57,682 nt of DNA from positions 1 to 57,682 of the forward strand of contig CAITWF010000011.1 of NCBI GenBank assembly GCA_903896015.1, read 5' to 3'. Every line of letters starts with the position of its first letter. Positions within the stretch are counted from its first letter, which is position 1. Below, piece by piece: positions 10,940 to 25,790 of the stretch. Source of the DNA: an uncultured Opitutia bacterium. GTDB taxonomy: Bacteria; Verrucomicrobiota; Verrucomicrobiia; Opitutales; Opitutaceae. The notes under the pieces are model-generated. The model saw nothing but the letters and a program-made list of their open reading frames with translations. It was not told where the DNA came from and ran no database searches. The position numbers were made by a program, and so were the translations under genes.

Positions 10940-11011
10940 CGCTCGGACTGTCCGCCGCGCGCCGCGCATCCCCGTGGCCTCCGCGCCGTCTAGCGCGCAG
11001 TTCCCTCTTCA

Positions 11012-12400
11012 ATGCGCCACCCCACCCGCCTGCTTGCCCTGCTCACGCTTTTTTCGCTTCTGCCGATTCTCCGCGCCGCGAATGAGCCCCCCACCGAATG
11101 GATCGATCCAGACACCGGCCACCGCGTCGTCCGACTCTCCCGCGAACCCGGCACCGCGAGCCTCTACTTCAACCAAAACGCCTACACGCCCGACGGCAAA
11201 AAACTGATCGTCACGACGCCCGGCGGCATCTCCACGATCGATCTCGCCACGCGCGCGATCGAGCAAATCGTCGCGGGCGAAGTCCGCGTGATCATGGCCG
11301 GACACAAGACTGGCGACATCTACTACACGAAGCGCAACGGCGCCGACACCTTCGTTTACGCCACCACGATCGCGACGAAGGCCACGCGCGAAATCGCGAA
11401 GCTTCCCCGCGGCGGCGTCGCCTCGATCAACGCCGACGAGACGCTGATGCTCGGCAGCTACACCGAGGGCCAGACCGGCAACGGCTTCGGCGGACGCCGC
11501 GGCGGCAACCCCGCCGCCGACGCCCCACCGCCTGCGCCGGGCCAGCCCGCAATGAGCAACACCGCCGCGAGCCAGCCGAACACCGGCGGTGCCAACGCCA
11601 CGTTTCAGGCGAACTACCGCGCCACGTTTCCCGACGGCACGCCCATGACGTTTGCCGAAGCGAAGGATCTTTCGCTCCACAACCGCCTCATGGCGATCCG
11701 CCAGGGTCCGCCGCAGGTGATGTTCACCGTGAATATCCAGACCGGCGAAATCAAAGAGGTGCTCAAGGAGCACGAGTGGCTCGGCCACCTGCAATTCTCC
11801 CCGACCGATCCGAACCAGATCATGTTTTGCCACGAGGGCACGTGGCACGAGGTCGATCGTGTGTGGCTCGTGCGCACCGACGGCACCGGCCTCACAAAAG
11901 TCCACACGCGCACCATGAACATGGAAATCGCCGGCCACGAATTTTTCAACGCCGACGGCACGACCGCGTGGTATGACTTGCAGACGCCGCGCGGCGAGGA
12001 CTTCTGGCTCGGCGGCTACGAACTCGCCACTGGGCACCGCATGTGGTGGCATTTGCAGCGCGACGAATGGTCGGTGCACTTCAACGTCTCGCCCGACGGG
12101 AAATTTTTCTGTGGCGACGGAGGGGACGAGGAAATGGTTGCGCACGCGAAAAACGGAAAATGGATTTACCTCTTCCGCCCCGAGCGCATCCCGGACGTAG
12201 CCGGCGTGAAAAACCCAAACTCCGAATCACTCATCGGCACCGGCCGCTTTGACTCGGAGCGGCTCGTCAACCTGACGAAGCACAACTACACGCTCGAGCC
12301 GAATGTCTCCTTTACCCCCGACATGAAATGGATCGTATTTCGCTCGAACCTCAGCGGCGCCGTCCACACCTACGCCGTCGAGCTCGCGAAGGCGAAGTAG
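11012..12400 (+). CDS. ogl: oligogalacturonate lyase (PL22-like)
   Basis: Predicted to cleave short oligogalacturonides to unsaturated monomers at the end of pectin breakdown. The 462-aa protein has an N-terminal hydrophobic signal-like segment, then EWIDPDTGHRVVRLSREPG and NQNAYTPDGKKL, hallmark sequences of the family, and a seven-bladed-propeller pattern of PDG repeats. Candidate metal-ligand regions are FCHEGTWHEVDRVW and WSVHFNVSPDG. A Gly/Pro/Asn-rich insertion around residues 153-205 makes it longer than the roughly 390-aa enterobacterial enzyme as I recall it. The signal sequence implies a periplasmic rather than the classical cytoplasmic location. It opens the pectin locus. Confidence 0.88.
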   Translation: MRHPTRLLALLTLFSLLPILRAANEPPTEWIDPDTGHRVVRLSREPGTASLYFNQNAYTPDGKKLIVTTPGGISTIDLATRAIEQIVAGEVRVIMAGHKTGDIYYTKRNGADTFVYATTIATKATREIAKLPRGGVASINADETLMLGSYTEGQTGNGFGGRRGGNPAADAPPPAPGQPAMSNTAASQPNTGGANATFQANYRATFPDGTPMTFAEAKDLSLHNRLMAIRQGPPQVMFTVNIQTGEIKEVLKEHEWLGHLQFSPTDPNQIMFCHEGTWHEVDRVWLVRTDGTGLTKVHTRTMNMEIAGHEFFNADGTTAWYDLQTPRGEDFWLGGYELATGHRMWWHLQRDEWSVHFNVSPDGKFFCGDGGDEEMVAHAKNGKWIYLFRPERIPDVAGVKNPNSESLIGTGRFDSERLVNLTKHNYTLEPNVSFTPDMKWIVFRSNLSGAVHTYAVELAKAK

Positions 12401-12513
12401 CGCCGCGTTTTCTCGTTCGTGCCTGACCGTCCAACGGACGCCTTGTTGACAGGTCGCTGGCATGCCCGCCCGACTCTGCACGCCCCCGCATCGCCCCCAC
12501 GTTTCGTTCCCCG

Positions 12514-13488
12514 ATGAAATCCCTGTTATTCGTTCTACTTGCCGTGGCCGTGTCCGCCCGCGCCGAACTCCCCGCCGCCCAGCCCTCGCCCACCCGCCCC
12601 GTGAACGTCGATCCGAAAGGCCCGCCGATTCCTGCCGCGGCGCCGGTCGAATCCGCGCATCCCGCTTCGATTCCCCTCTGGGCGAAGGGCGCGCCCGGCT
12701 CGGAAGCGCGCAAGGACGAACCTGAATCGATCAGTTGGCGGCAGGAGCCGGACATTGTTTTTCCTGTCATTTCCAACATCCACAATCCCTCGCTCACGCC
12801 CTACCTGCCCGCGAAAGACAAAGCCACTGGCTGCGCCGTCATCATCGCGCCCGGCGGCGGCCACATGCAGCACACGATCGATCGCGAGGGCTACGATCTC
12901 GGAAAATGGTTCGCGGAACGCGGCATTGCGGCGTTTGTGCTGAAATACCGCCTCGCGCGCGATGGCTCCACACCGACCGGCGCGCCGCAACCCTACACCG
13001 TCGATCGCGACGCACTCGCCGATGGAAAACGCGCCGTCCGCCTCATCCGCGCCCATGCCGCCGAGTGGGGCGTGAATCCCGCCCGCGTCGGTATCATGGG
13101 CTTTTCCGCCGGTGGCGAAGTCGCGCTGCTCACCGCCGGCAAAGCCGACGCCGGTGACGCCGCCGCCGCCGACCCCGTCGAAAGGCTTTCCTCCCGCCCT
13201 GATTTCTTCGCGCCGATCTATTCCGGTGGCTTCAATCGCGCCGACCTCACGTGGACAAGGGACACGCCGCCCGCATTTCTCTCCTGCGCCTACGACGACC
13301 GCATGCCGGAGCAGATGGTGGCCTTCTTCGTCACCCTCCGCAAAGCCGGCGTCCCCGCGGAGCTCCACATCTACAATAGTGGCGGCCACGGCTACGGCGT
13401 CCGCACCGATCGGCCCAACCTGCCCGTCTCCACGTGGCACTATCGTTTCGCTGAGTGGCTCGGCGAGCGCGGCTTCCTCCGCAAGTGA
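12514..13488 (+). CDS. secreted alpha/beta-hydrolase, acetyl-esterase type (copy 1)
   Basis: Likely removes acetyl groups from plant polysaccharide. The 324-aa protein has a signal peptide (MKSLLFVLLAVAVSARA), oxyanion motif APGGGH, nucleophile Ser198 in GFSAGGE, Asp in SCAYDDRM and His in NSGGHGYG. It is clearly related to the esterase at 17881 (shared GAPGSEAR, ATGCAVI, GIAAFVLKYRL, AAEWGVNP). The following DUF1592 gene starts 2 bases after its stop, so the two are probably translated together. The acetyl-xylan or pectin-acetyl substrate is inferred from family and context. Confidence 0.85.
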   Translation: MKSLLFVLLAVAVSARAELPAAQPSPTRPVNVDPKGPPIPAAAPVESAHPASIPLWAKGAPGSEARKDEPESISWRQEPDIVFPVISNIHNPSLTPYLPAKDKATGCAVIIAPGGGHMQHTIDREGYDLGKWFAERGIAAFVLKYRLARDGSTPTGAPQPYTVDRDALADGKRAVRLIRAHAAEWGVNPARVGIMGFSAGGEVALLTAGKADAGDAAAADPVERLSSRPDFFAPIYSGGFNRADLTWTRDTPPAFLSCAYDDRMPEQMVAFFVTLRKAGVPAELHIYNSGGHGYGVRTDRPNLPVSTWHYRFAEWLGERGFLRK

Positions 13489-13490
13489 CG

Positions 13491-16424
13491 ATGCGCCCGG
13501 CCACGCTCATCGCCGCCGCGTTTGTTGCCACGCGACTCGTCGCGGCGGTCCCGCCCGCCGGTCCGACGAAACCGGTCTCGTTCGAAAAGGAAGTCACCCC
13601 GCTGCTCCAGAAATATTGCTACGACTGCCACGGCGACGGCGCGCACAAGGCGGGCCTCGCGCTCGACGACTACGAAACCGTGGCAGACGTTTACGCCGCA
13701 CGGCCGAAATGGGAAGCGGTCCTCCGCAACGTCAGCCGCCATGAGATGCCGCCCGACGACGGCGGCGTTCTGCCGAGCGACCCCGAACGCGAAACCATCA
13801 GCCGATTTGTCGAACAGGAACTCTTCAAGCTCGACCCCGCTCACCCCGATCCCGGCCGCGTCGTCCTCCGCCGGCTCAATCGCGCCGAATACAACGCCAC
13901 CATCCACGATCTCACGGGTATTGATTTTCGTCCGTCGAACGATTTTCCGCCCGACGATTCCGGCTACGGCTTCGACAACATCGGCGCTGTGCTCTCGCTC
14001 CCGCCCGTTCTGCTCGAAAAATATCTCGCGGCCGCCGACAAGATTTTCGACACCGCCATCGTCACCGACCCGATCAAGAGCGAGACGCGCCGCATCCCCG
14101 CGAGCCTCTCCGAGATCGGATTCAACGCCATCGGCGATCGCGGGGACGGCTGGGTGCATTTGATTTCCCTCGAGGAGGACGACACCGCGGTCGAACTCAA
14201 TCTCCCAGCCGGCGACTACAACTTCCGGGTGCTCGCCTACGCAACGCGCGACGGCGGCGCCCTGAAAGGCCAGGGCAGCGAAGCCCCGCTTGCGTTCAAC
14301 GAGGATCCCGGCCCGACCAAACTCGCGCTGATGCTCAACGACGCGTTCGTGCAGGATTTCACAATCGCGACCGATGAAGCGCACCCGCAGGTCTACGAGG
14401 CCCGGCTCGGCGTGCCGGCCGGGCGCCAGCGTTTTCGCGCAAGCGTAGCCCGCAAGCGGGGCGGCAGCGAAAACGAAACATTCATGCTCAACGGCCGCCT
14501 CGGCAAACAGCAGCCCGGGATCGTCTTCGTGAAGTGGCTTGAGATCGAGGGACCGCTCCCCGCCGCCACCCGCCGCTACCGCGCCGATCAACTTGCCGTG
14601 ACCGGCGAAGGCAGCTTCACCCCGACGGGCGAGCGCCTGCTCCGCGGCAATGGCACCGTCACACTGCCCTTCACCACGGCGAAGCAAACCGAAGTGATCC
14701 TGCGTGCCCAAGGCTACGCCAACCAGGCCGGCGACGAACCCGCCCGGATGGAATTCCGCGTCGATGGCGTGCCGTTGAAAACGTTCGACGTGCTCGCACC
14801 CGCCACGATGCAGCCGATTCCGAAGCAGCGCGTCTTCTCGCTCTCATTGCTCGTCCCGCGTCCTTACGTCTACGAAGTTCGCACCCAGCTCGCGCCCGGC
14901 GCGCACCAGTTTTCCGCCGGATTCGTGAACAACTTTTCCGATCCAAAGGCAGAAAACCCCAACCTCCGCGATCGTAACCTGATCATCCAGAGCCTCGAAG
15001 TTTCCGACCTCTCCGCACCCGTCGTCACACCGGAGAAGCCCGCGCCCATTGCCGAACTTTTCGCGCATGCGGCGTCCGCCAAAGGCGAGGCGGCCAAGGC
15101 CCGTGCCGTCGTCACGCGATTCACCCGCCGCGCGTGGCGCCGCCCCGTCGAGCCTGTTGAAATCGAACGACTGATGAAGCTTTACACAGTCGCGCGCGCC
15201 GACGGCGAGAGTTTCGACGCCGGCGTGAAGCTCGCCCTCAAAGCCGCGATTGTCTCGCCACACTTTCTCTTCCTCGGCGAGGAATCTCGCGCGGGAGCGT
15301 CGCTGGCCGACGCCCCCAGCGTGCGCCGACCAGCGGCCCAAAAAAATGATCCCACTCCGCCCAAAGTTGTCCTTCTCGACGAATTTGCCCTCGCCTCGCG
15401 CCTCTCTTATTTTCTCTGGAGCTCGATGCCTGACGACGAACTCCTTGATCTCGCAGGCCGCGGTCAGTTGCGCGCCAATTACCCGGCGCAAGTCCGCCGC
15501 CTTCTCGCCTCGCCGAAATCCCGCGCGCTGGTCGATAACTTCGCCGGCCAGTGGTTGCAAATCCGCAGTCTCGAAACCTTCGCGCCCGACAAGAAGCTCT
15601 TCCCTGAATTCGATCCCATCTTGCGCAGCGCGATGCAGCGGGAGACTGAATTATTTTTTGAAAACGTGCTCCACGAAGATCGCAGCGTCTTCGATTTTCT
15701 CACGGGCGACTACACGTTCGTGAATGCCCGGCTCGCCAAGCTCTACGGGCTGCAGTTCCCTGCAAGCGCGCCCGCGGATGAGTTCACGAAAATCTCCCTC
15801 GCCGACACGCCGCGTCGCGGCGTCCTCACGCAAGCGAGCGTGCTCACGCTCACCTCCAACCCGACGCGCACCTCGCCCGTCAAGCGCGGCAAGTGGGTTC
15901 TCGAAAACATTCTCGGCACGCCGCCTCCGCCACCGCCGCCCAACGTGCCGGAACTCGACGACAAATCCCGCCACCTCACCGGATCGCTCCGCCAGCAACT
16001 TGAGCAACATCGGGCGAATCCCACCTGCGCCTCGTGCCACGCCCGCATGGATCCGATTGGTTTCGGCTTGGAGAATTTCAGCGCCATCGGCGTCTGGCGC
16101 GACAAGGATGGCGATGCCCCCGTCGATCCGGCCGGCCAGCTCGCCAGCGGCGATAAATTCGGCGGCGCCGCCGAACTCGCCAATCTCCTCGCGCAGAAGC
16201 GTCGTTGGGAATTCCTACATTGCATCGCCGACCGGACGCTCACCTACGCCCTCGGTCGCGGCACGGAATATTACGATCGGCCCGCGCTCGATCAAATCGT
16301 CGAGCGCCTGGAGAAAAATGACGACACGTTCTCGTCCCTCGTGCTCGCCGTCGCGGAAAGTTTTCCGTTCCAAAATCGCCGCCTGGCCACGCCGAGCGTC
16401 GCCGTCACAGTCGAAACGCGCTGA
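13491..16424 (+). CDS. DUF1592-type planctomycete-cytochrome protein (copy 1)
   Basis: Large exported protein of unknown reaction. From the ATG at 13491 it is 977 aa with a signal peptide. An N-terminal c-type haem motif (Cys43-x-x-Cys46-His47, YCYDCHGDG) belongs to the planctomycete cytochrome family. Then come DUF1587 (RLNRAEYNATIHDLTG), a middle beta-rich region that may bind carbohydrate, DUF1595 (FTRRAWRRP), DUF1592 (LASRLSYFLWSSMPDDELL), DUF1588 with a second CxxCH (Cys846, Cys849, His850, CASCHARMDPIGFG) and DUF1585 at the C-terminus. Two haem sites suggest periplasmic electron transfer. It is paired with the DUF1552 gene 58 bases downstream. Confidence 0.88.
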   Translation: MRPATLIAAAFVATRLVAAVPPAGPTKPVSFEKEVTPLLQKYCYDCHGDGAHKAGLALDDYETVADVYAARPKWEAVLRNVSRHEMPPDDGGVLPSDPERETISRFVEQELFKLDPAHPDPGRVVLRRLNRAEYNATIHDLTGIDFRPSNDFPPDDSGYGFDNIGAVLSLPPVLLEKYLAAADKIFDTAIVTDPIKSETRRIPASLSEIGFNAIGDRGDGWVHLISLEEDDTAVELNLPAGDYNFRVLAYATRDGGALKGQGSEAPLAFNEDPGPTKLALMLNDAFVQDFTIATDEAHPQVYEARLGVPAGRQRFRASVARKRGGSENETFMLNGRLGKQQPGIVFVKWLEIEGPLPAATRRYRADQLAVTGEGSFTPTGERLLRGNGTVTLPFTTAKQTEVILRAQGYANQAGDEPARMEFRVDGVPLKTFDVLAPATMQPIPKQRVFSLSLLVPRPYVYEVRTQLAPGAHQFSAGFVNNFSDPKAENPNLRDRNLIIQSLEVSDLSAPVVTPEKPAPIAELFAHAASAKGEAAKARAVVTRFTRRAWRRPVEPVEIERLMKLYTVARADGESFDAGVKLALKAAIVSPHFLFLGEESRAGASLADAPSVRRPAAQKNDPTPPKVVLLDEFALASRLSYFLWSSMPDDELLDLAGRGQLRANYPAQVRRLLASPKSRALVDNFAGQWLQIRSLETFAPDKKLFPEFDPILRSAMQRETELFFENVLHEDRSVFDFLTGDYTFVNARLAKLYGLQFPASAPADEFTKISLADTPRRGVLTQASVLTLTSNPTRTSPVKRGKWVLENILGTPPPPPPPNVPELDDKSRHLTGSLRQQLEQHRANPTCASCHARMDPIGFGLENFSAIGVWRDKDGDAPVDPAGQLASGDKFGGAAELANLLAQKRRWEFLHCIADRTLTYALGRGTEYYDRPALDQIVERLEKNDDTFSSLVLAVAESFPFQNRRLATPSVAVTVETR

Positions 16425-16482
16425 CTGTCCTGCGCCTCCCCGCGTTGTCACTCCGCCCCCGCCCCTAGCTAGCCCCAACCCC

Positions 16483-17838
16483 ATGAACTCCCACTTCACC
16501 CTCCCGCGCCGCACGTTTCTCCGCGGCCTCGGCACGATCGTCGCGCTGCCGGTGCTCGACTCCGTCCTGCCGGTGCGGGCGTTGGGCGCATCTGGCGCGG
16601 CGGTAAAATTTCCGAAGCGCGTCGCGTGGATCTACGTCCCCAATGGTGCGAACATGGCCGACTGGACACCTGCGGCCACCGGCAGCGACTTCGCATTGCC
16701 GATGATTCTTGAGCCGTTGGCGGCACACAAAGCCAGCTTCAGCGTTGTCTCTGGTCTTGCGAACCATCAGGGCGACGAACTCGGGGATGGCGGCGGCGCG
16801 CACGCCCGCGGGATGGCGAGTTTCCTGACCGGCGTCCACCCGCGTAAAACCGCCGGCGCCGACATCAAGGGCGGCGTCTCCTGCGATCAAATCGCGGCCG
16901 GACAGATTGGCGATCAGACGCGGCTGGCTTCGCTGGAGTTGAGTTGCGACGGAGGTCAGCGCGCCGGCTCGTGCGACTCGGGCTACAGTTGCATTTACCA
17001 ATTCAATCTCTCGTGGAAATCCGAGACGCAGCCGATGATTCCCGAGGTAAATCCGCGCGCTGCGTTCGAGCGTCTCTTCGGCAACGGTGATCCCGCCGCC
17101 ACTCTCGAAGCCAGTGCGCGCCGCGCGCTCCACCGCAAGAGCATCCTCGACTACGTGCTCGACGACGCGCATCGCCTCGAAGGCCGCCTCGGCACCGACG
17201 ACCGCCGCAAACTCGATGAGTATCTCACCGCGGTCCGCGATCTTGAGCGTCGCATCGAACGCGCCGCAAAGTTTCCCACGCCCGCAGCGCCCGGCGGCGC
17301 GCACGCGCCGGAGATGTTCGAGACCTACGAACAGCACATGCAGCTCATGTATGACGTGATGACGCTCGCGTTTCAGACGGACTCAACGCGCATCGGCACC
17401 TTCATCGTCGCGCACGACGGCAGCAACCGCCCCTATCCCACCATCGGCATCCGCGACGGTCACCACGACCTCTCGCACCACCGCGACGACGAGGAAAAGA
17501 AAAAGAAACTCGCGCAAATCAACCGCTACCACGTCACGCAGTTCGCGCGCTTCCTCGATCGTCTGAAATCGATTAAGGAGGGCGACGGCACTTTGCTCGA
17601 CAACTGCACGATCCAATACGGCAGTGCCCTCAGCAACGGCAACGCCCACAGCCCCGAAAACCTCCCCATCCTCGTCGCGGGCGGCGGAGGCGGCACCCTC
17701 GCCACCGGCCGGCACTTGCGTGTCGACGAAAAGACGCCCATGACGAATCTCTACCGCTCGATGCTCGATAACGTCGGCGTGCGCACCGAGAAGATCGGCG
17801 ACAGCACCGGCAAACTTGACAAACTATTCGCCGGGTGA
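16483..17838 (+). CDS. DUF1552 protein with Tat signal (copy 1)
   Basis: The 451-aa protein has an N-terminal twin-arginine motif (PRRTFLRGLG at 8-17) followed by a hydrophobic segment, so it is probably exported folded. Conserved features shared with the paralogue at 22023 are WIYVPNGANMADWTP, three cysteines (155, 164, 170) in SCDGGQRAGSCDSGYSC, and a His-rich DGHHDLSHHRDD motif that could bind metal. The start at 16483 places the Arg pair near the N-terminus; the reading frame is open well upstream but that part overlaps the DUF1592 gene. The reaction is unknown; the constant pairing with DUF1592 suggests a shared complex. Confidence 0.86.
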   Translation: MNSHFTLPRRTFLRGLGTIVALPVLDSVLPVRALGASGAAVKFPKRVAWIYVPNGANMADWTPAATGSDFALPMILEPLAAHKASFSVVSGLANHQGDELGDGGGAHARGMASFLTGVHPRKTAGADIKGGVSCDQIAAGQIGDQTRLASLELSCDGGQRAGSCDSGYSCIYQFNLSWKSETQPMIPEVNPRAAFERLFGNGDPAATLEASARRALHRKSILDYVLDDAHRLEGRLGTDDRRKLDEYLTAVRDLERRIERAAKFPTPAAPGGAHAPEMFETYEQHMQLMYDVMTLAFQTDSTRIGTFIVAHDGSNRPYPTIGIRDGHHDLSHHRDDEEKKKKLAQINRYHVTQFARFLDRLKSIKEGDGTLLDNCTIQYGSALSNGNAHSPENLPILVAGGGGGTLATGRHLRVDEKTPMTNLYRSMLDNVGVRTEKIGDSTGKLDKLFAG

Positions 17839-17880
17839 GTCGGGTCGCTCCGACACCGTCCACTCTCTTCCCACTCCAAA

Positions 17881-18756
17881 ATGAAATTACCCCGCCTCTT
17901 CTTCGCCCTCGCTGCCTCCACAGCGCTTCGGCTCGCCGCCGCCGATTCCCATCCCATCGTTCCGCTCTGGTCCAACGGTGCGCCCGGCTCGGAGGCGCGC
18001 ATGAACGAACCCGAAAAGATCGTCGGCAACAGCGTCTCCAACATCCACCACCCGTCGCTGATGGTGTTTCTCCCCGAGAAGGACCAAGCGACCGGCTGCG
18101 CCGTGATCGTTTCGCCGGGCGGTGGGCACAAAAATCTCTCCTACAAAAATGAGGGCCTCGACATCGCGAAGTGGCTCGCCGACCACGGCATCGCGGCGTT
18201 CATCTTAAAATACCGCCTCGGTCTCGATGACGCCAATCCGCCCGGCCAGCCGCAGCCTTACAAGTTTGATGTCGAGGGCACGGCCGATGGCCAGCGCGCC
18301 GTTCGCCTCGTCCGCAGCCGCGCTGCGGAATGGGGCGTGAATCCGAACGCGATCGGCATGATCGGGTTTTCCGCCGGCGGTGAAATTGTCGGCCAAGTGA
18401 TGATGCATCCCGACCTCGGCAAACCCGACGCCGCTGATCCGCTTGATCGCATGAGTGCAAAGCTGAATTTCCAAGGCCTGATTTATCCGGGTAAATCCGC
18501 CTTGATCAAACCCGTGAAGGATTCGCCGCCCGCGTTTCTCGCGTGCGGCTTCAAGGATCGGCAGGATATTTCCGAAGGCCTCGCGCAGGTTTACCTGCTC
18601 TTCAAGCAGGCCGGCGTGCCGACAGATTTTCACGTTTACGCCGGCGCAGGCCACGGTTTCGGCGCACGCGAGATCGGCAAGTCGCCGCCGGGCGCGTGGG
18701 TCGATAGCTTCCGCGCATTCCTCGTCGACCAGAAGTTTATTCCGGCCGGCCGCTGA
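17881..18756 (+). CDS. secreted alpha/beta-hydrolase, acetyl-esterase type (copy 2)
   Basis: A 291-aa paralogue of the esterase at 12514 with signal peptide, SPGGGH oxyanion motif, nucleophile Ser164 in GFSAGGE, an Asp-containing CGFKDRQD and His in GAGHGFG. It lacks the roughly 30-residue Pro-rich spacer after the signal peptide and the extra segment around the nucleophile region seen in copy 1. It begins 42 bases after the first DUF1552 gene. A polysaccharide acetylesterase role is inferred from family and from the neighbouring rhamnogalacturonan genes. Confidence 0.85.
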   Translation: MKLPRLFFALAASTALRLAAADSHPIVPLWSNGAPGSEARMNEPEKIVGNSVSNIHHPSLMVFLPEKDQATGCAVIVSPGGGHKNLSYKNEGLDIAKWLADHGIAAFILKYRLGLDDANPPGQPQPYKFDVEGTADGQRAVRLVRSRAAEWGVNPNAIGMIGFSAGGEIVGQVMMHPDLGKPDAADPLDRMSAKLNFQGLIYPGKSALIKPVKDSPPAFLACGFKDRQDISEGLAQVYLLFKQAGVPTDFHVYAGAGHGFGAREIGKSPPGAWVDSFRAFLVDQKFIPAGR

Positions 18757-18940
18757 ATCCCGTGTTGGGGAAACGTTGCCTCGCGGTTGCGTCGGCATTC
18801 GACTACGCCGCAGGGCGATAGTGCGAATCGCACGTCTGCGCTGGCGGCGGACATGGCTTCGTGCGTCTCCCCTGATCGGCCGCAGCTCTCTGTCTTGCAT
18901 TGGCGTGACCGATGTGCCGGTTGGGCCGGTGAGATTGCGA

Positions 18941-18958
18941 TGTTGAAAATATAAATAT
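18941..18958 (+). promoter_or_regulatory. AT-rich patch, candidate promoter of second DUF1592 gene
   Basis: In a 245-base gap before 19002 an AT-only patch contains TATAAA (18950-18955), close to a -10 consensus and unusual in this GC-rich DNA. TTGGGC at 18921 and TTGCGA at 18935 are both at poor spacing for a -35, so the assignment is tentative. The rest of the gap shows no gene or strong hairpin. Confidence 0.3.
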
Positions 18959-19001
18959 CGCGCAGAAATCTTCTGCACCCCGCCAGCGTCTACCTCGGCT
19001 C

Positions 19002-21923
19002 ATGCGACTGCGTTTCCCCCACTTCGCCCTGTTCGGCACGCTCGTCGCCGTGTCCTCGGCGTTCGGCGGTGCATTTGGCGCGAAGCCCAAATCGCTTACG
19101 CTGGAGAAGGATGTCCGGCCGCTCCTTAAGAAGTTTTGCTACGACTGCCACGGCGAAGGCGAACACCGGGCCGATCTTGCGCTCGACGATTACAAGACTC
19201 CCGCCGATATCGTCCATGCGAAAGCCGAGTGGGAACTCATCCTCCATCACGTCCACTCACACACCATGCCGCCGGCCGAGGAGCCGCAGCCCTCCCAGTC
19301 CCAGCGCGATCTCATCGCAACCTGGATCGAGCAGGAGCTTTATCATTACGATCCGCGTTTCCCCGATCCCGGCCGCGTGACAATTCGGCGGCTCAACCGC
19401 GCCGAATACAACAATACCGTCCGCGATCTCGTCGGCGTGGATTTCCAGCCGGCGGATGATTTTCCGGCGGACGACTCCGGCTACGGCTTCGACAACATTG
19501 CCGATGTGCTCTCGCTGCCGCCGATGCTGTTCGAGAAATATCTCACGGCCGCCGACAAGTTGCTGAACCAGGCCATTGTCACCGAGCCGGTCCAGAGCCG
19601 CGTGCAGCGCGTCGCGGCAAACCTCGCACAGATCGGCTTCAACGCCGCCGGCGATCGCGGCGACGGCTGGGTGCAGCTCATCAGCCTCGAGGAGGACGAC
19701 GTCGCTCTCGAGCAATCGATCCTCGCGGCGGGCGACTACGTTTTCCGCGTGCAGGCGTTTGCGCAGCCGACGGGCGGGGTTTTGCGGCGCGCCGGCGACA
19801 GCGAAGGAGCGCGGCCCGAGCCGCTGATTCTCGGCTTCGCGCTCGATGACGTGTTCGTGAAGCGCGTCGCCGTCACCGCCGATGAAGCACATCCGGGCAC
19901 CTACGAAGTGCGCCTCGGCGTGCCCACGGGGCACCATCGCTTTCGCGTCGTCGTGCCGCGGCTGCACGGCGGCGACAACGAGCTCGTCATGCTCAACGGC
20001 CGCATAGGCCGCCAGCAGTCGGGCATCCTTTTCGTTAGATGGCTCGAACTCGAAGGCCCGCTGCGCGCCGCCACGATCCGCCGGGACGCCGCGTCGCTCG
20101 CCGTGACCGGGGAAGGCCGCAATTCACCCGACGGCGCGCGTCTGCTCGCGCACAACGGCGAAGTCTCCACCGAACTCAAAGCGGCGCGCGACGGCGAGTT
20201 CATCCTGCGCGCGCAGGCGTTTGCCCAGCAGGCGGGCAACGAGCCTGCGCGCATGGAATTCCGAGTCGATGGCAAGCCGGTGAAAACCTTCGACGTGCTC
20301 GCGCCTGCCGCAATGCAGCCGCTTAAGGGGCAGAACGTTTTCTCGACCGCCCTTCTCGTCGCGCAACCCGAAGTCTACGAGTATCGCGTAAGGCTCGCCG
20401 CCGGCCCGCACCACTTCGCGGCCGCCTTCGTCAACGACTTCGCCGATCCAAAAAGCAGCAACCCCAACCTGCGCGACCGGAACCTCATCGTGCAAAATCT
20501 CGAAACGGCCGAGCTCGGCGCGACGGTGCCGTTGCCGCCCCTGCCAGCGCCGCTCCGCCGGATTTTTTCCGGCGAACCGACGGCCACGACGAAGCTCGCG
20601 GTCGCACGCACGTGGCTGGGCGAATTCGCCCGCCGCGCGTGGCGCCGGCCGGTGGCCGCCGACGAACTCGACCGGCTCGTCGCGCTCTTCGCGCTCGCCG
20701 ATCAACGCGGTGAGAAGTTCGAAGTCGCGCTCAAGATCGCGCTCAAGGCCACACTGGTTTCGCCGCAGTTTCTGTTTCGCGGCGAAATCCAGCCCGAGCC
20801 GGACAACCCCCAGTCGGTTCACCCGGTCAACGAATTTGCGCTCGCCTCGCGCCTCTCCTACTTCCTCTGGAGCTCGATGCCAGACGAGGAACTGTTCGAT
20901 CTCGCGGCGCGCGGCATGTTGCGGAAAAACCTCACTGCGCAGGTCCGCCGGATGCTCGCCTCACCCAAGTCCCGCGCCCTCGTCGAAAATTTTGCGAGCC
21001 AGTGGCTCCAGTTCCGCAGCGTGAAGTCGCTCACGCCCGACAAGGAGCGTTTCCCGGATTTCGATGAGCGACTGCGCTCCGCCATCATCAAGGAAACCGA
21101 AACGTTCTTCGATCACGTGATGCGCGACGATCTCAGCGTGCTTGATTTCCTCAACGCCGACTACACCTACGTAAACGAGCGCCTCGCGAAGCACTACGGC
21201 ATCGCGGGCGTGACCGGCGAACAGTTCCGGCGCGTCTCGCTCGCGGGCACGCCCCGCCGCGGCGTCGTCACGCAAGCCAGCGTGCTTCTGCTCACCTCGA
21301 ATCCCAACCGCACCTCGCCCGTGAAGCGCGGCAAATGGGTCCTCGAAAATCTCCTTGGCACGCCGCCGCCCCCGCCGCCGCCGGACGTTCCCGATCTGAA
21401 AGTTGCCGACAACGGACAGGCGCTTGAGGGCACGCTGCGTCACCAAATGGAGATGCATCGTGAAAAGCCTGCCTGCGCCGCCTGCCACGCCCGCATGGAC
21501 CCGATCGGATTTGGGCTGGAAAATTTCGACGGCATCGGCGCGTGGCGCACGAAGGACGGCGCGCTCCCGATCGAGGCCGCCGGCAAACTCAACAGCGGCG
21601 AGGAATTCAAAACCGCGATCGATCTCACGAACATCCTCGCGAAGAACAAGCGCGACGACTTTATCCGCTGCCTCTCCGAGAAGATGCTGACCTACGCCCT
21701 CGGGCGCGGTCTCGAATACTACGATCGCACCGCCACAGACAAAATCTCCGCACAGCTCGTGCAGTCGCGGTTCAAGTTTTCCAGTCTCATCCTCGCCGTC
21801 GTCGACAGCCTGCCCTTCCAAAACCGCCGCGGCGAAGGCGATCGTAGCGTTACGCCGGCGGCAGCACCTGCGGCCGCGGCCCTGTCCGTGCCGCCGGGCA
21901 AGCTGTCTGCCGCGAACCCGTGA
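19002..21923 (+). CDS. DUF1592-type planctomycete-cytochrome protein (copy 2)
   Basis: A 973-aa paralogue of the protein at 13491, colinear over its whole length. It has a signal peptide, haem motif Cys46-x-x-Cys49-His50 (FCYDCHGEG), DUF1587 (RLNRAEYNNTVRDLVG), the beta-rich middle region, DUF1595 (FARRAWRRP), DUF1592 (LASRLSYFLWSSMPDEELF), DUF1588 with Cys825, Cys828, His829 (CAACHARMDPIGFG) and DUF1585. The tail after QNRRG is Ala/Pro-rich and differs from copy 1. Unlike copy 1 it is separated from the preceding esterase by 245 bases and may have its own promoter. Function unknown. Confidence 0.88.
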   Translation: MRLRFPHFALFGTLVAVSSAFGGAFGAKPKSLTLEKDVRPLLKKFCYDCHGEGEHRADLALDDYKTPADIVHAKAEWELILHHVHSHTMPPAEEPQPSQSQRDLIATWIEQELYHYDPRFPDPGRVTIRRLNRAEYNNTVRDLVGVDFQPADDFPADDSGYGFDNIADVLSLPPMLFEKYLTAADKLLNQAIVTEPVQSRVQRVAANLAQIGFNAAGDRGDGWVQLISLEEDDVALEQSILAAGDYVFRVQAFAQPTGGVLRRAGDSEGARPEPLILGFALDDVFVKRVAVTADEAHPGTYEVRLGVPTGHHRFRVVVPRLHGGDNELVMLNGRIGRQQSGILFVRWLELEGPLRAATIRRDAASLAVTGEGRNSPDGARLLAHNGEVSTELKAARDGEFILRAQAFAQQAGNEPARMEFRVDGKPVKTFDVLAPAAMQPLKGQNVFSTALLVAQPEVYEYRVRLAAGPHHFAAAFVNDFADPKSSNPNLRDRNLIVQNLETAELGATVPLPPLPAPLRRIFSGEPTATTKLAVARTWLGEFARRAWRRPVAADELDRLVALFALADQRGEKFEVALKIALKATLVSPQFLFRGEIQPEPDNPQSVHPVNEFALASRLSYFLWSSMPDEELFDLAARGMLRKNLTAQVRRMLASPKSRALVENFASQWLQFRSVKSLTPDKERFPDFDERLRSAIIKETETFFDHVMRDDLSVLDFLNADYTYVNERLAKHYGIAGVTGEQFRRVSLAGTPRRGVVTQASVLLLTSNPNRTSPVKRGKWVLENLLGTPPPPPPPDVPDLKVADNGQALEGTLRHQMEMHREKPACAACHARMDPIGFGLENFDGIGAWRTKDGALPIEAAGKLNSGEEFKTAIDLTNILAKNKRDDFIRCLSEKMLTYALGRGLEYYDRTATDKISAQLVQSRFKFSSLILAVVDSLPFQNRRGEGDRSVTPAAAPAAAALSVPPGKLSAANP

Positions 21924-22022
21924 ATCCTCGCTCGCCCGCGCGCGTCTAGCCGCATAGCCTCTGCTCAGACGCCACTCGTTCCTCCCTGCTCAGCGCCGAC
22001 CTTCCTCCGTCCTCCCCGTCCC

Positions 22023-23393
22023 ATGAAAAACTGGCAAATCCCCCGCCGCACCTTTCTCCGCGGGCTCGGCACGATGATCGCGTTGCCCATGCTCGAGTCG
22101 ATGGTGCCGGCCGTGGGCGCGCTGGCGGCCACCACCGGCGGCGCCCCGACGACGCCCAAGGGTTTTCCGAAACGCATAGCCTTCGTCTACACACCCAACG
22201 GCCAGAACATGGCCGACTGGACGCCTGCCACGCTCGGCGCCGACTACGAGCTGCCGCTGATTCTTGAGCCGCTAAAACCATTCCGCAGCGACATGATGGT
22301 GCTCAGCGGGCTCGCGCAAACGCGCGCCAACGCCAACGGCGACGGCGGCGGCGACCACGCGCGCGCGTCGGCGACCTTTCTCACCGGCTGCCAGGCGCGC
22401 AAAACCGCCGGCGCCGACATCAAGATCGGCGTTTCCGTCGACCAGATCGCCGCGGCTAAGGTCGGCGAGCAGACACGTTTTCCTTCGCTCGAATTGAGCT
22501 GCGACAAAGGTCAGCGCGCCGGCTCATGCGACTCCGGCTACAGCTGCGCCTATCAGTTCAACCTCTCGTGGAAATCGGAGTCGATGCCCGTCAACCCCGA
22601 GGTCGATCCCCGCGCCGCCTTCGACCGCCTCTTCGGCAGCGCAAACGTCAACGAGACGAAGGAAGCCCGCACCAAACGCGACTTCTACAACCGCAGCATT
22701 CTCGACTTCGTCCTCGATGATGCGAAACGACTCCAGTCGAACCTCGGCGCGACCGACCGACGCAAGGTCGACGAATACCTCACTGCCGTCCGCGAGCTTG
22801 AGCGCCGCATCGAGCAAAGTGCGAAATTCGATCTCAACCTCCCGCCCGGTGGTCGCAAGGAGCGCGACATGACCGGCGATTACAGCTTTGAGCAGCATAT
22901 CCGCCTGATGTTCGACTTGCAGGTGCTCGCGTTTCAGACGGACAGCACGCGCGTCTCGACCTTCATTCTTGCGCACGACGGCAGCAACCGCCCGTTCCCT
23001 TTCCTCGGCATCTCCGACGGCCACCACGATCTCTCGCACCACCGCAACGACGAGGCAAAGAAGGCAAAGATCGCCCAGATCAATAAATTCTACACCACGC
23101 AGTTTGCCTACTTCCTCGAGAAGATGAAATCGATCAAGGAAGGCGAAGGCACGCTCCTCGATCACTCGATGATCGTTTACGGGAGTGGCATCAGCGACGG
23201 CAACCAACACCTTCACACAAACCTGCCGGTGATTCTCGCCGGCCGCGGCGGTGGCACAGTCAGCTCCGGACGGCACGTGCGCGTTCCTGAAAAAACGCCG
23301 ATGACCAATCTCTACCTCTCGATGCTCGACCGCGTCGGCGTGCATGCCGAGCGCATCGGCGACAGCTCGGGCAAGCTCGAGAGCATCGGGTGA
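22023..23393 (+). CDS. DUF1552 protein with Tat signal (copy 2)
   Basis: A 456-aa paralogue of the protein at 16483. It has the twin-arginine segment PRRTFLRGLG (8-17), FVYTPNGQNMADWTP, conserved Cys160, Cys169 and Cys175 in SCDKGQRAGSCDSGYSC, and the His-rich DGHHDLSHHRND. An additional Cys123 is absent from copy 1, which instead has Cys134. It lies 99 bases after the second DUF1592 gene. An exported partner of that cytochrome-like protein is a reasonable inference. Confidence 0.86.
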   Translation: MKNWQIPRRTFLRGLGTMIALPMLESMVPAVGALAATTGGAPTTPKGFPKRIAFVYTPNGQNMADWTPATLGADYELPLILEPLKPFRSDMMVLSGLAQTRANANGDGGGDHARASATFLTGCQARKTAGADIKIGVSVDQIAAAKVGEQTRFPSLELSCDKGQRAGSCDSGYSCAYQFNLSWKSESMPVNPEVDPRAAFDRLFGSANVNETKEARTKRDFYNRSILDFVLDDAKRLQSNLGATDRRKVDEYLTAVRELERRIEQSAKFDLNLPPGGRKERDMTGDYSFEQHIRLMFDLQVLAFQTDSTRVSTFILAHDGSNRPFPFLGISDGHHDLSHHRNDEAKKAKIAQINKFYTTQFAYFLEKMKSIKEGEGTLLDHSMIVYGSGISDGNQHLHTNLPVILAGRGGGTVSSGRHVRVPEKTPMTNLYLSMLDRVGVHAERIGDSSGKLESIG

Positions 23394-23510
23394 CGCCCGA
23401 GTTTACCGCGCGCCTGCTAGCCTCGCCGCACATCGCTCGATCGATTTGACCGTCCGCCATCCGGCGGGCTGCGTTGGCCGGTCGCTCGTATTGCATCGCA
23501 GCCGTTCCCC

Positions 23511-24830
23511 ATGAAAATCACCCCGCTGTTTTTTCGCCCCGCAGCACTGCTCGCCCTGCTCACCGCACCGCTCGTGCTCGCGGCGCCACTAAAATTCTCG
23601 TTTGGCACCGGCGCGGTTGCGTCCGGCGCCACGCTGGTCGCGCCGGATACGACTTACTCCGCGGCGCGTAGCTTTGGTTTCGAGCCGGGCGCTGCCATCA
23701 CGGCGACCGCCGACGGCGTCGCAAGCGAGCGGCCGTTTTACTTTTCGGCAAAACTTCCCGCCGAGGGAAACTACCGCGTCACGCTTACGTTTCCCGGTGG
23801 TGCCGACGTTACCGTGAAGGCTGAACTGCGCCGATTGATGATCGAACGCTTCCAGGTGCCCGCCGGCCAGAGCGCGACGCGCACGTTCATCGTCAATACC
23901 CGCACGCCACAAATCGCCGCGACCGGCGACATCAAGGAAGGCGTCGTAAAACTCAAAGCGCCTCGCGAAAGCGTGCAGGAAGCCTGGGCCTGGGACGACG
24001 CGCTCACGCTGGAATTCAACGGCGCCCATCCCGCCGTCCGCTCCATCACCATCGAACCCGTGACCGTGCCGACCGTGTATCTAATCGGCGACTCCACCGT
24101 CTGCGATCAATCGAAGGAGCCGTTCAACAGTTGGGGCCAGATGCTCCCGCGCTGGTTCAAACCGGAGATCGCGATCGCGAATCACGCCGAGTCGGGCGAG
24201 ACCTACCGCGATTCAATCGGCCGCCGCCGCCTCGACAAGATGCTGAGCGTGATGAAGCCGGGCGACTGGATGATCATGCAGTTCGGGCACAACGACCAGA
24301 AGCAGATCGCTGCGGGCAACGGGGGGCCGTTCACCACCTACAAAGCCGAAATCAAAAAACACGTCGACACCATCCGTGCCCACAACGGCACCCCGATCAT
24401 CGTCTCGCCGATGGAGCGGCGGAATTTCGACGAGCATGCGAAGATCAAGCCCTCGCTCGCCGATTACGCCGAGGCCTCCCGCCAGGCCGCGAAAGAGCTC
24501 GGCGTCGCGTTCATCGATCTGAACGCCCTGAGCATTCCCTTCTACGAGGCACTAGAGGCGCACGGGGCGGAATATTCGCGCCACGCCTTCGCCGGCCAAG
24601 ACAACACCCACCACCAAAACTATGGAAGCTACGAGCTTTCCAAGGCGATCGTCCAATCGATCCGCGACCAGAAGCTGCCGCTCGCGAAATTCATCATCGA
24701 CGACTTCCCCGGCTTCGATCCCGCCCATCCAGACGAGGTGGAAAAATTCTCAGTGCCGCCGAGCCCGAACTTTACCAATCAACGGCCGCTCGGCGACGAG
24801 ACGGCCCCCGTCCCGACCCCAGCCAAATGA
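23511..24830 (+). CDS. rhamnogalacturonan acetylesterase (CE12-like SGNH hydrolase)
   Basis: Removes acetyl groups from the rhamnogalacturonan backbone of pectin. The 439-aa protein has a signal peptide, an N-terminal beta-sandwich-like domain of about 180 aa (LKFSFGTG, RVTLTFPGGADVTVKAE), then the SGNH domain: YLIGDSTVCDQ with Ser195, NHAESGETYRD, FGHNDQK, and Asp364-x-x-His367 in GQDNTHHQNYG. This two-domain layout is known for CE12 enzymes. Its stop overlaps the next gene by 4 bases. Confidence 0.9.
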   Translation: MKITPLFFRPAALLALLTAPLVLAAPLKFSFGTGAVASGATLVAPDTTYSAARSFGFEPGAAITATADGVASERPFYFSAKLPAEGNYRVTLTFPGGADVTVKAELRRLMIERFQVPAGQSATRTFIVNTRTPQIAATGDIKEGVVKLKAPRESVQEAWAWDDALTLEFNGAHPAVRSITIEPVTVPTVYLIGDSTVCDQSKEPFNSWGQMLPRWFKPEIAIANHAESGETYRDSIGRRRLDKMLSVMKPGDWMIMQFGHNDQKQIAAGNGGPFTTYKAEIKKHVDTIRAHNGTPIIVSPMERRNFDEHAKIKPSLADYAEASRQAAKELGVAFIDLNALSIPFYEALEAHGAEYSRHAFAGQDNTHHQNYGSYELSKAIVQSIRDQKLPLAKFIIDDFPGFDPAHPDEVEKFSVPPSPNFTNQRPLGDETAPVPTPAK

Positions 24831-25783
24831 GAACACTCCGCTGGCTTCTTTCGTTCCTCGCACTCGCGATCGCTGCCCACGCCGCTGATACCGCCTACCT
24901 TTTCACCTACTTCACGAAGAACGGTGAGGACGGCCTGCACCTCGCGTGGAGCGCTGACGGCTATCGTTGGGAAAAGCTCAATGGCGGCCAGAGCTGCCTC
25001 GCGCCTACCGTGGGCCGCTCAAAACTCTTGCGCGATCCGTGTGTCGTGCGCGGCCCTGACGGCACGTTTCACCTCGTGTGGACCGCCGGCTGGACCGAAA
25101 ACGATATCGGCTACTCCTCGACCAAGGACTTCATCACGTGGTCGCCGGAAAAGGAAATTCCCGTGATGGCCCATGAGCCGACCGTGCGAAACACGTGGGC
25201 GCCCGAGGTCCACTACGACGAACGGCGCAGCGAGTTTGTCATTTTCTGGGCCTCGACCATCCCGGAGAAATTCCGCGAAACGGCGGGCGCCTCCGAGGAC
25301 AACTACAACCACCGGATCTACTCGACGACCACGAAGGACTTCAACGCGTTCACGCCCACGCAACTTTTCTACGAACCGGGCTTCAGCGTGATCGACGCCA
25401 CGTTCCTCCACGCCGACGGCAAGCACTGGCTGATCGTTAAGGACGAGACGCGCAACCCGCCGAAGAAATTTCTCCGTCTCGCCGCCGCCGCTGATCTACA
25501 CGGGCCGTTCGGTGAACTCTCCGCGCCCTTCACGCCGCCCGGCCTCTGGTCCGAGGGCCCGACCGCAATCAAGATCGGAGACGACTACCTCGTCTATTTC
25601 GAGGCCTACCGGGACAAGCACTACTGCGCGATGCGTTCGCGCGACCTCAAGACATGGGAGGATGTGACCGCCAAAATGTCATTCGTTGACGAAGGCACTC
25701 CCACGCGCATGAAGCACGGCACCATCATCGCCGTGCCCATGGAAATCGTCGCTCGACTCCGCGCTGCTTCGCCTTCGCGATAA
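24827..25783 (+). CDS. secreted GH43-like glycoside hydrolase
   Basis: Predicted five-bladed beta-propeller glycosidase for plant side chains such as arabinose or galactose. The 318-aa protein has a signal peptide (MRTLRWLLSFLALAIAAHA), a blade motif HLAWSADGYRWEKL, Asp70 in LLRDPCVV, Glu127 in TWAPEVHYD and Glu243 in LWSEGPTAIKI, placed like the carboxylates of GH43 enzymes; Glu instead of Asp at the WAP-x-V position is a variation. The ATG at 24827 overlaps the acetylesterase stop (ATGA). The precise linkage cut is not readable. A GH117/GH32-like relative in the same clan is the alternative. Confidence 0.82.
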   Translation: MRTLRWLLSFLALAIAAHAADTAYLFTYFTKNGEDGLHLAWSADGYRWEKLNGGQSCLAPTVGRSKLLRDPCVVRGPDGTFHLVWTAGWTENDIGYSSTKDFITWSPEKEIPVMAHEPTVRNTWAPEVHYDERRSEFVIFWASTIPEKFRETAGASEDNYNHRIYSTTTKDFNAFTPTQLFYEPGFSVIDATFLHADGKHWLIVKDETRNPPKKFLRLAAAADLHGPFGELSAPFTPPGLWSEGPTAIKIGDDYLVYFEAYRDKHYCAMRSRDLKTWEDVTAKMSFVDEGTPTRMKHGTIIAVPMEIVARLRAASPSR

Positions 25784-25790
25784 GCGCAAA

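What the first reader, a model, noticed from the sequence alone, without database searches (positions are those of the whole stretch)
12514..23393. Tandemly duplicated esterase-DUF1592-DUF1552 cassette inside a pectin locus
Seen: esterase 12514, DUF1592 13491, DUF1552 16483, then esterase 17881, DUF1592 19002, DUF1552 22023, same order and strand, each member plainly paralogous to its counterpart along its length. Established: DUF1592 proteins carry planctomycete-cytochrome domains and DUF1552 genes usually accompany them. Inference: the trio is one functional unit, an exported redox module dedicated to acetylated pectin oligomers, duplicated to handle two substrates. In the first copy the esterase and cytochrome genes are 2 bases apart, which ties deacetylation and redox genes together. 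I know of no described reaction for this set.
Basis: partly seen in the sequence, partly recalled or inferred. Interest (0 to 1): 0.72.

Follow-up and report, generated by a model that had tools for sequence, protein, structure and literature searches.

The report
Esterase–cytochrome–DUF1552 pectin module, not block-duplicated
A pectin-degradation gene cluster of a bacterium related to Opitutus holds two look-alike sets of an esterase, a sugar-binding cytochrome and a Tat-exported protein; the first set recurs in the same order in relatives, but the two sets are old, separately assembled lineages, and what the cytochrome pair does is still unknown.

Summary
The six genes are real, in the stated order and strand. 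The first set (esterase–DUF1592–DUF1552) is a conserved module: of 18 family genomes with a close esterase A match, 10 hold the trio in order and 14 have DUF1592 directly behind the esterase. 'Tandem duplication of a unit' is rejected: in all three gene trees copies A and B are not sisters (AU p 4e-6, 3e-5, 1e-83). Esterase B is an old paralogue that in relatives sits upstream of esterase A, also where the cytochrome pair is absent; 245 bases separate it from the second pair. Pair B is a lone lineage, with no DUF1592 match above 62% identity in 252 family genomes. DUF1592 here carries two c-type heme motifs and a CBM35/36-like sandwich. DUF1552 is not visibly redox: its model has the alkaline phosphatase/sulfatase fold, with conserved histidines where the usual motifs are missing. 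A same-genus genome has a matching pectin locus without the pair and another genome carries truncated remnants, so the pair is an optional add-on. Best reading: an envelope accessory module for acetylated pectic oligomers; the chemistry is unproven. The pairing of such cytochromes with an unknown gene family is already in print.

The parts
11012..12400 (+). PL22 oligogalacturonate lyase-like protein, upstream neighbour
   Evidence: PF14583 78.7 bits; PL22 relatives lie in the held stretch of 8 of 10 trio loci, window included
12514..13488 (+). Esterase A (324 aa), signal-peptide-like start, Ser198 in GFSAG, His292 in GHG
   Evidence: BD-FAE 49.3 bits; best NCBIfam model PaeX pectin acetylesterase 151.8 bits, cut-off 550; nearest solved sequences 6a6o and 7dwc; motifs
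13491..16424 (+). DUF1592 protein A (977 aa): CxxCH heme motifs at residues 43 and 846; CBM35/36-like sandwich at 359-509
16483..17838 (+). DUF1552/HXXSHH protein A (451 aa), twin-arginine motif RRTFL at residue 9, alkaline-phosphatase-superfamily fold in the model
   Evidence: PF07586 355.9 bits; RR motif; model and fold match
17881..18756 (+). Esterase B (291 aa), old paralogue whose relatives sit upstream of esterase A in other genomes; 42 bases after DUF1552 A
18757..19001 (.). 245-base gap that separates esterase B from the second pair
   Evidence: no sigma-70-type promoter match
19002..21923 (+). DUF1592 protein B (973 aa): CxxCH at 46 and 825; CBM60 match at 405-501 below its cut-off (24.8 against 28.2 bits)
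   Evidence: lone lineage in the tree
22023..23393 (+). DUF1552 protein B (456 aa), RR motif at residue 8, the same His motifs as copy A
   Evidence: lone lineage
23511..24830 (+). GDSL esterase, CE12-like by its PaeY match, downstream neighbour
   Evidence: PF13472 64.0 bits; PaeY model 43.5 bits, cut-off 1000; the CE12 label itself is recalled, no CAZy search was run
24842..25783 (+). GH43 protein, tested from 24842; the in-frame ATG that overlaps the stop of the GDSL gene (about 24827) is the likelier start
   Evidence: PF04616 41.5 bits; sequence

Best explanation
Shown: the locus is a pectin-oligomer cluster (PL22, two PaeX-like esterases, GDSL esterase, GH43) that holds two DUF1592–DUF1552 pairs. 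Pair A together with esterase A is an inherited module of this family; pair B is a second, deeply diverged pair placed behind esterase B, so the two 'cassettes' arose by gene assembly and shuffling and not by one recent tandem duplication. Inferred mechanism: lyases release unsaturated, acetylated pectic oligomers; the esterases strip acetyl groups in the cell envelope; the DUF1592 protein holds the sugar through its CBM35/36-like sandwich and passes electrons through its two c-type hemes; the Tat-exported DUF1552 protein, an alkaline-phosphatase-fold protein with a His-rich site, acts on the bound sugar or on a group attached to it, with the cytochrome as its electron partner. That the pair does redox chemistry on the sugar is inference; that esterase, cytochrome and DUF1552 protein belong to one pathway rests on conserved neighbourhood and correlated divergence alone.
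For: Trio in order in 10 genomes (window, L008, L009, L010, L011, L012, L043, L045, L046, L048), i.e. 10 of the 18 genomes with an esterase A match at E<=1e-104 among 252; DUF1592 directly behind it in 14 of 18. PL22 in 8 of the 10 stretches. Correlated divergence of DUF1592 and DUF1552 over 20 pairs (r 0.90, p 0.0001), and of esterase A with each (r 0.67 and 0.74, 11 loci); shared descent of the hosts could give part of this. Two CxxCH in 43 of 45 sampled DUF1592 proteins, three in 2. Sandwich 359-509: Z 14.7, rmsd 1.9 over 115 residues to xylanase XynJ, Z 14.6 to a CBM36, Z 13.1 to a CBM35 with bound delta-4,5-anhydrogalacturonic acid. DUF1552 fold: Z 18.4, rmsd 3.3 over 249 residues to a snake-venom phosphodiesterase; 50 of 50 listed entries in that superfamily as I read their titles. 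TonB-receptor plug genes beside 5 of 40 sampled pairs.
Against: G025, same genus, has PL22–three esterases–two GDSL esterases–GH43 with no DUF1592 or DUF1552 in the 19.9 kb read (its one DUF1552 lies elsewhere), so such a locus runs without the pair. G455 (L101) keeps only truncated remnants of the pair. Among 40 sampled pairs an ester hydrolase of a known family is a close co-directional neighbour of 4 (L119, L120, L132, L139). DUF1552 stands without DUF1592 in the held flanks of 14 Verrucomicrobiota loci and one acidobacterial locus. In the sandwich search, sandwich domains of Cry toxins also reach Z 11-12, so the CBM family is not fixed. Both models are moderate (pLDDT 73.9 and 70.1); Foldseek gave DUF1552 no match at E<=0.001 (best 1.7e-3). 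No expression, activity or heme data.
Confidence: 0.4

Rival explanations
1. Tandem duplication of a whole three-gene cassette in this lineage, followed by specialisation for two substrates.
For: Same order and strand, full-length paralogy.
Against: Held-together A+B trees are rejected for DUF1592 (p 4e-6), DUF1552 (p 3e-5) and esterases (p 1e-83). Copy A is nested among single A-type copies of other genomes. Esterases A and B are adjacent in other genomes that have one such pair or none. An old block duplication with later loss of pair B elsewhere is not formally excluded for the pair, but it does not explain the esterase order.
Confidence: 0.05
2. DUF1552 is a hydrolase (sulfatase/phosphodiesterase-like) and the trio removes several substituents from pectic oligomers; the cytochrome has a separate role.
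For: Alkaline-phosphatase-superfamily fold; esterase neighbours; conserved histidines that could hold a metal.
Against: The position equivalent by spacing to the sulfatase Cys/Ser is a His in 45 of 46 sequences, and the place where I expect the first metal Asp is Asn in 37 of 46 (both equivalences by eye, no residue superposition); adjacency to a DUF1592 cytochrome gene in 40 of 40 sampled loci.
Confidence: 0.25
3. The pair is a general carbohydrate-linked electron-transfer unit that moves between loci; its place beside esterase A is linkage kept by shared regulation.
For: The close co-directional neighbour varies between the 40 sampled loci: ankyrin-repeat (5), TonB-receptor plug (5), PF00756 esterase (3), WD40 (2), others; absence in G025 and decay in G455; nearly identical C84-type cluster in G000 and G023 (hydrolase 97.6%).
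Against: Esterase A–DUF1592 adjacency in 14 of 18 genomes; a hydrolase of another kind sits between DUF1592 and DUF1552 in 6 genomes.
Confidence: 0.25
4. The cytochrome feeds electrons to a lytic polysaccharide monooxygenase, as suggested for Cellvibrio Cbp2D.
For: Heme motifs plus a carbohydrate-binding-like domain in one protein with a signal-like start, like Cbp2D (passages of PMC12542752 and PMC10916295).
Against: No LPMO_10 (PF03067) match in the own genome, 97.9% complete; other LPMO families were not searched.
Confidence: 0.04

Closest known systems
'Planctomycete-specific' cytochrome genes (PSCyt/PSD domains) next to families of unknown genes, in freshwater Verrucomicrobia (He et al. 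2017, PMC5615132; passages seen)
   Same: Same domain set; PSCyt3-encoding genes 'usually next to' an unknown family; carbohydrate-binding modules in some; a role on mono- or oligomers taken into the cell already proposed there.
   Different: The esterase-linked trio in PL22 loci, its orthology across relatives, the alkaline-phosphatase fold of DUF1552 and the absence/decay cases did not appear in the passages I saw (12 of 13 places; supplement with Fig. S7 and Text S1 not read).
Pectin acetylesterase PaeX (NCBIfam NF041902)
   Same: Best curated model for both esterases (151.8 and 97.5 bits).
   Different: Cut-off is 550 bits, so not members of the equivalog; substrate untested.
Cbp2D/Cbp2E and Teredinibacter redox proteins (PMC12542752, PMC10916295; passages seen)
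   Same: Exported multidomain proteins that join c-type heme domains and carbohydrate-binding modules.
   Different: Those domains are named X158, X183, X132 and the substrate is cellulose; no sequence link to DUF1592 was tested here.
Alkaline phosphatase superfamily (ENPP phosphodiesterases, sulfatases)
   Same: Fold of the DUF1552 model (Z up to 18.4).
   Different: No detectable profile similarity to 7 sulfatases of the own genome (hhalign E 0.12); usual nucleophile and metal motifs not seen by eye.

Membership tests
PSCyt1/PSCyt3–PSD (DUF1592) cytochromes | PSCyt1, PSD3, PSD5, PSD4, PSCyt3, PSD2 domains above Pfam cut-offs | tested here: met
   Both copies, all six domains above cut-off
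PSCyt1/PSCyt3–PSD (DUF1592) cytochromes | Two CxxCH heme motifs | tested here: met
   Residues 43/846 and 46/825
PSCyt1/PSCyt3–PSD (DUF1592) cytochromes | Covalent heme and redox activity | not testable with these tools
   Needs protein
DUF1552 / HXXSHH (PF07586) | Match over the curated cut-off and HxxSHH motif | tested here: met
   355.9 and 360.8 bits against 30; GHHDLSHH in both
Alkaline phosphatase superfamily | Fold | tested here: met
   Z 18.4, rmsd 3.3 over 249 residues; model pLDDT 73.9; Foldseek best E only 1.7e-3
Alkaline phosphatase superfamily | Catalytic nucleophile (Ser/Thr/Cys-formylglycine) and two-metal Asp/His set (recalled definition) | tested here: inconclusive
   By motif spacing a His lies where sulfatases have Cys/Ser; no residue-level superposition was possible
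PaeX pectin acetylesterase equivalog | Score over the curated cut-off of 550 bits | tested here: not met
   151.8 and 97.5 bits
PaeX pectin acetylesterase equivalog | Deacetylation of pectic oligomers | not testable with these tools
   Needs assay
Tandem cassette duplication | Copies A and B are each other's closest relatives in each gene tree | tested here: not met
   AU p 4.07e-6, 2.58e-5, 1.28e-83

The most novel reading that the evidence does not exclude
DUF1552 is a sulfatase-fold protein whose hydrolytic centre was rebuilt into a histidine-rich metal site, and with a sugar-binding diheme cytochrome it forms a previously undescribed envelope oxidoreductase that oxidises deacetylated pectic (and, in other loci, other) oligosaccharides and sends the electrons straight into respiration.
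Probability: 0.12. Interest if true: 0.85.

Novelty: new variant of a known kind. Interest (0 to 1): 0.45.

Why it matters
Planctomycete-type cytochromes and their DUF1552 partners are numerous in Verrucomicrobiota, and I found no reaction described for them. A small, conserved trio with a known polymer context (pectin), close relatives that lack or are losing the pair, and a first structural handle on DUF1552 give a concrete system in which their function could be tested.

Tried and rejected
Profile-profile comparison of DUF1552 with own-genome sulfatases gave nothing (E 0.12 over 46 columns; 7 of the 12 fetched sulfatase loci had the motif I searched and were used), so the superfamily link rests on the predicted fold. 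Sequence search of PDB with the DUF1552 profile gave only chance-like hits (7 up to E 10, best 0.27); with the DUF1592 profile two hits, a SUMO-2 chain at 0.009, taken as chance, and a cytochrome c-552 at 0.12. Foldseek with the whole DUF1592 model listed many beta-sandwich proteins (best 9.5e-10); regions outside 282-509 are barely tested. Promoter scan: no sigma-70 match in 10200-26000 (0 found, 1.6 expected). LPMO_10 search of the own genome: none.

First tree runs: the DUF1552 tree placed B as sister of the whole A clade (96/93); with more C84-type rows B lies in an unresolved fork with the A, C84-type and G001-type groups. I rely on the second. The first DUF1592 tree was a quick one; one search replaces it. 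A first distance correlation (r 0.75 over 21 pairs) contained a wrong pairing in L087 and was repeated without that row (r 0.90 over 20).

Rows and limits: L040, L042, L044 are the same contigs as L009, L013, L010; L069 and L090-L092 repeat L034, L012, L011, L008. Of the 18 genomes with esterase A at E<=1e-104: 10 have the trio; G050 has DUF1552–esterase–DUF1592; G024 has no DUF1552 in the 15 kb read of a 16.6 kb contig; G447 and G544 have DUF1592 cut by the contig end (these 14 are '14 of 18'); G543 has only the first 63 residues of DUF1592, then unrelated sequence; G025 and G514 show no pair; G086 is broken across contigs. Of 30 further genomes with weaker esterases (to 1e-75) I read 6 (L099-L103, L105). 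The search scored at most three candidates per genome; one weak match (G078, 48%) and partial ones were not placed in the tree. G455's remnants could in part be assembly error. The 40 loci were chosen by me from the listed matches, leaving out A-type and already fetched ones, not at random; the C84-type loci, where a gene lies between DUF1592 and DUF1552, were thus outside that sample. Of 35 neighbours (same strand, within 350 bases) 34 were scanned; L121:2833-4185 matched no family. One search's '3 reversed' pairs include one artefact of a double pair (L123); by locus 39 of 40 have DUF1592 first, L157 the reverse. Papers that only appeared in listings (PMC11495043, PMC13274419, PMC8981238 and others) were not opened.
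Full report
WHAT IS THERE. Copies A and B are 46.6%, 57.6% and 62.9% identical (esterase, DUF1592, DUF1552). Gaps are 2, 58, 42, 245 and 99 bases: read by spacing, the first four genes (esterase A, DUF1592 A, DUF1552 A, esterase B) form one tight run and the second pair stands apart behind 245 bases. The neighbours are PL22 upstream and a GDSL esterase plus GH43 downstream, so the pectin context is right. The host genome (123 contigs, 97.9% complete) has seven DUF1592 and seven DUF1552 matches, on the same six contigs. That its family is Opitutaceae is inferred from the titles of matching named records (L009, L013).

IS IT A TANDEM DUPLICATION? No. Copy A has orthologues in relatives at 59-79% (esterase), 63-79% (DUF1592) and 70-86% (DUF1552), closer than copy B for each gene. 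Trees held to A+B as sisters are rejected: DUF1592 p 4.07e-6 (23 rows), DUF1552 p 2.58e-5 (40 rows) and esterases p 1.28e-83 (25 rows). The esterase paralogues are old: in L009, L010, L011, L012, L045, L096 and L097 an esterase B relative stands directly upstream of esterase A, and G025, of the same genus, has three such esterases in tandem with no cytochrome pair in the 19.9 kb read. In the window esterase B is instead downstream of DUF1552 A. Pair B forms its own branch beside the A, C84-type and G001-type groups; the best matches of DUF1592 B in 252 family genomes are at most 62% identical, and those at the top are members of the A group. It is therefore a deep paralogue or an acquisition from an unsampled lineage; I cannot tell which.

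IS THERE A CASSETTE? For copy A, yes. Of 18 family genomes with an esterase A match at E<=1e-104, 14 have DUF1592 right behind it and 10 the whole trio in order; two of the other four are cut by the contig end, G024 lacks DUF1552 in the stretch read, G050 is permuted. G543 has only the first 63 residues of DUF1592, G025 and G514 show no pair, G086 is broken across contigs. PL22 relatives are in 8 of the 10 trio stretches; L011 (short contig) and L043 show none. The pair is dispensable: absent in G025 (lost or never gained), and in G455 only remnants lie between an esterase and a GDSL gene: DUF1592 residues 175-427 with three stops in one frame, and DUF1552 residues 231-437 (assembly error not excluded).

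THE CORE UNIT IS THE PAIR. In 40 of 40 further DUF1552 loci chosen from the family search, DUF1592 is adjacent and on the same strand, DUF1592 first in 39; 36 of 100 sampled family genomes have DUF1552 at all. Divergence of the two proteins is correlated (r 0.90 over 20 pairs, p 0.0001), which shared host history could partly give. The close third gene varies: PF00756 esterase (L119, L120, L139, and own-genome C25, L051), GDSL (L132), TonB-receptor plug (5), ankyrin repeats (5), WD40 (2), others. In a C84-type group a 673-aa hydrolase, weakly like PHB depolymerases (35.3 bits against a cut-off of 150; no Pfam match), sits between DUF1592 and DUF1552 in six genomes at 65-98% identity. So ester hydrolases recur but are not a constant part. 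DUF1552 can also stand alone: 14 Verrucomicrobiota loci and one acidobacterial locus (L035) show no DUF1592 in the held flanks, which reach from 0.9 to 9 kb upstream (L022 has a marginal 20-bit match; L028 and L038 are too short to tell). And G024 has DUF1592 A without DUF1552 nearby.

ANATOMY OF THE PROTEINS. DUF1592 A has CxxCH at 43 and 846, a signal-like N-terminus, and a beta-sandwich at 359-509 that matches CBM36/35/6 domains best (Z 14.7, rmsd 1.9 over 115 residues; a CBM35 with bound delta-4,5-anhydrogalacturonic acid at Z 13.1), while sandwich domains of Cry toxins reach Z 11-12. The model is moderate (pLDDT 70.1, pTM 0.58). DUF1552 has a twin-arginine motif in all 44 sampled sequences and, in the model, an alkaline-phosphatase-superfamily fold. 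His328, His332 and His389 are invariant in 46 of 46 aligned sequences, His107 in 45, His327 and His333 in 43. By spacing, His107...Leu115-Thr-Gly falls on the signature Cys-x-Pro-Ser-Arg-x-x-x-Leu-Thr-Gly seen in own-genome sulfatases, with His at the nucleophile position; 30 of 44 sampled sequences keep that exact His-to-LTG spacing. This equivalence is by eye and unproven; the superfamily's metal-site definition is recalled.

HOW IT MAY WORK. Inference: acetylated, unsaturated pectic oligomers are deacetylated by the esterases in the cell envelope, held by the cytochrome's sandwich domain, and altered by the DUF1552–DUF1592 pair with electrons flowing through the hemes. The direction of electron flow, the reaction and the substrate are unknown. 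A purely hydrolytic DUF1552 and a linkage-only reading remain live rivals.

WHAT IS IN PRINT. He et al. 2017 (PMC5615132, passages seen) already report that PSCyt3-encoding genes usually neighbour a family of unknown genes, that some carry carbohydrate-binding modules, and propose action on mono- or oligomers taken into the cell. Searches for DUF1592 with DUF1552, DUF1552/DUF1588/PSCyt1/HXXSHH/'planctomycete cytochrome', 'Planctomycete-specific cytochrome'/PSCyt/DUF1592, DUF1501/DUF1549/DUF1553, pectin with Verrucomicrobi and cytochrome c terms and 'alkaline phosphatase superfamily' with Planctomycet, cytochrome c and domain of unknown function showed no paper naming the esterase trio or the DUF1552 fold in titles, abstracts' starts or the passages I read; the library is open-access only and supplements were not read. 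PMC2754498 (passages) lists a DUF1552 gene of Rhodopirellula baltica in an expression table; PMC6004670 (passage) lists a CBM2 protein annotated DUF1592 from Cellvibrio in a lignocellulose community.

VERDICT. Real, partly misread. Interest is moderate: a good model locus for an open question, not a new kind of system on present evidence.

Noticed in passing
L049 (own genome contig C84) and L087 (G023 contig C19): The DUF1592–hydrolase–DUF1552 cluster is nearly identical in the two genomes (hydrolase 97.6%; DUF1592 branches 0.017 and 0.023) although their A-type DUF1592 genes are only 68% identical, which suggests recent transfer.
   Followed up: partly
L101:7481-8869 (G455): Truncated remnants of a DUF1592–DUF1552 pair between an esterase and a GDSL gene: a possible loss in progress.
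   Followed up: yes
L096:2785-4957 (G543): DUF1592 starts right behind esterase A but breaks off after about 63 residues into unrelated sequence; truncation or a chimeric contig.
   Followed up: partly
L014-L024, L026, L035, L039, L054: DUF1552 genes with no DUF1592 gene in the held flanks; the partner-free form may help to find the activity of DUF1552 itself.
   Followed up: partly
L149, L151, L152, L154, L156: DUF1592–DUF1552 pairs followed on the same strand by an ankyrin-repeat protein of about 480-510 aa.
   Followed up: no
L118, L122, L145, L147, L157: Genes with a TonB-receptor plug domain (about 1140-1310 aa) directly beside DUF1592–DUF1552 pairs.
   Followed up: no
L049:15706-17502: A 598-aa protein with only PSD3 and a sub-threshold PSCyt1 match, i.e. 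the N-terminal part of a DUF1592-type protein, next to a WD40-repeat gene.
   Followed up: no
own genome, contigs C114, C47, C62, C104: 28 sulfatase-family matches, many close together on these contigs.
   Followed up: no
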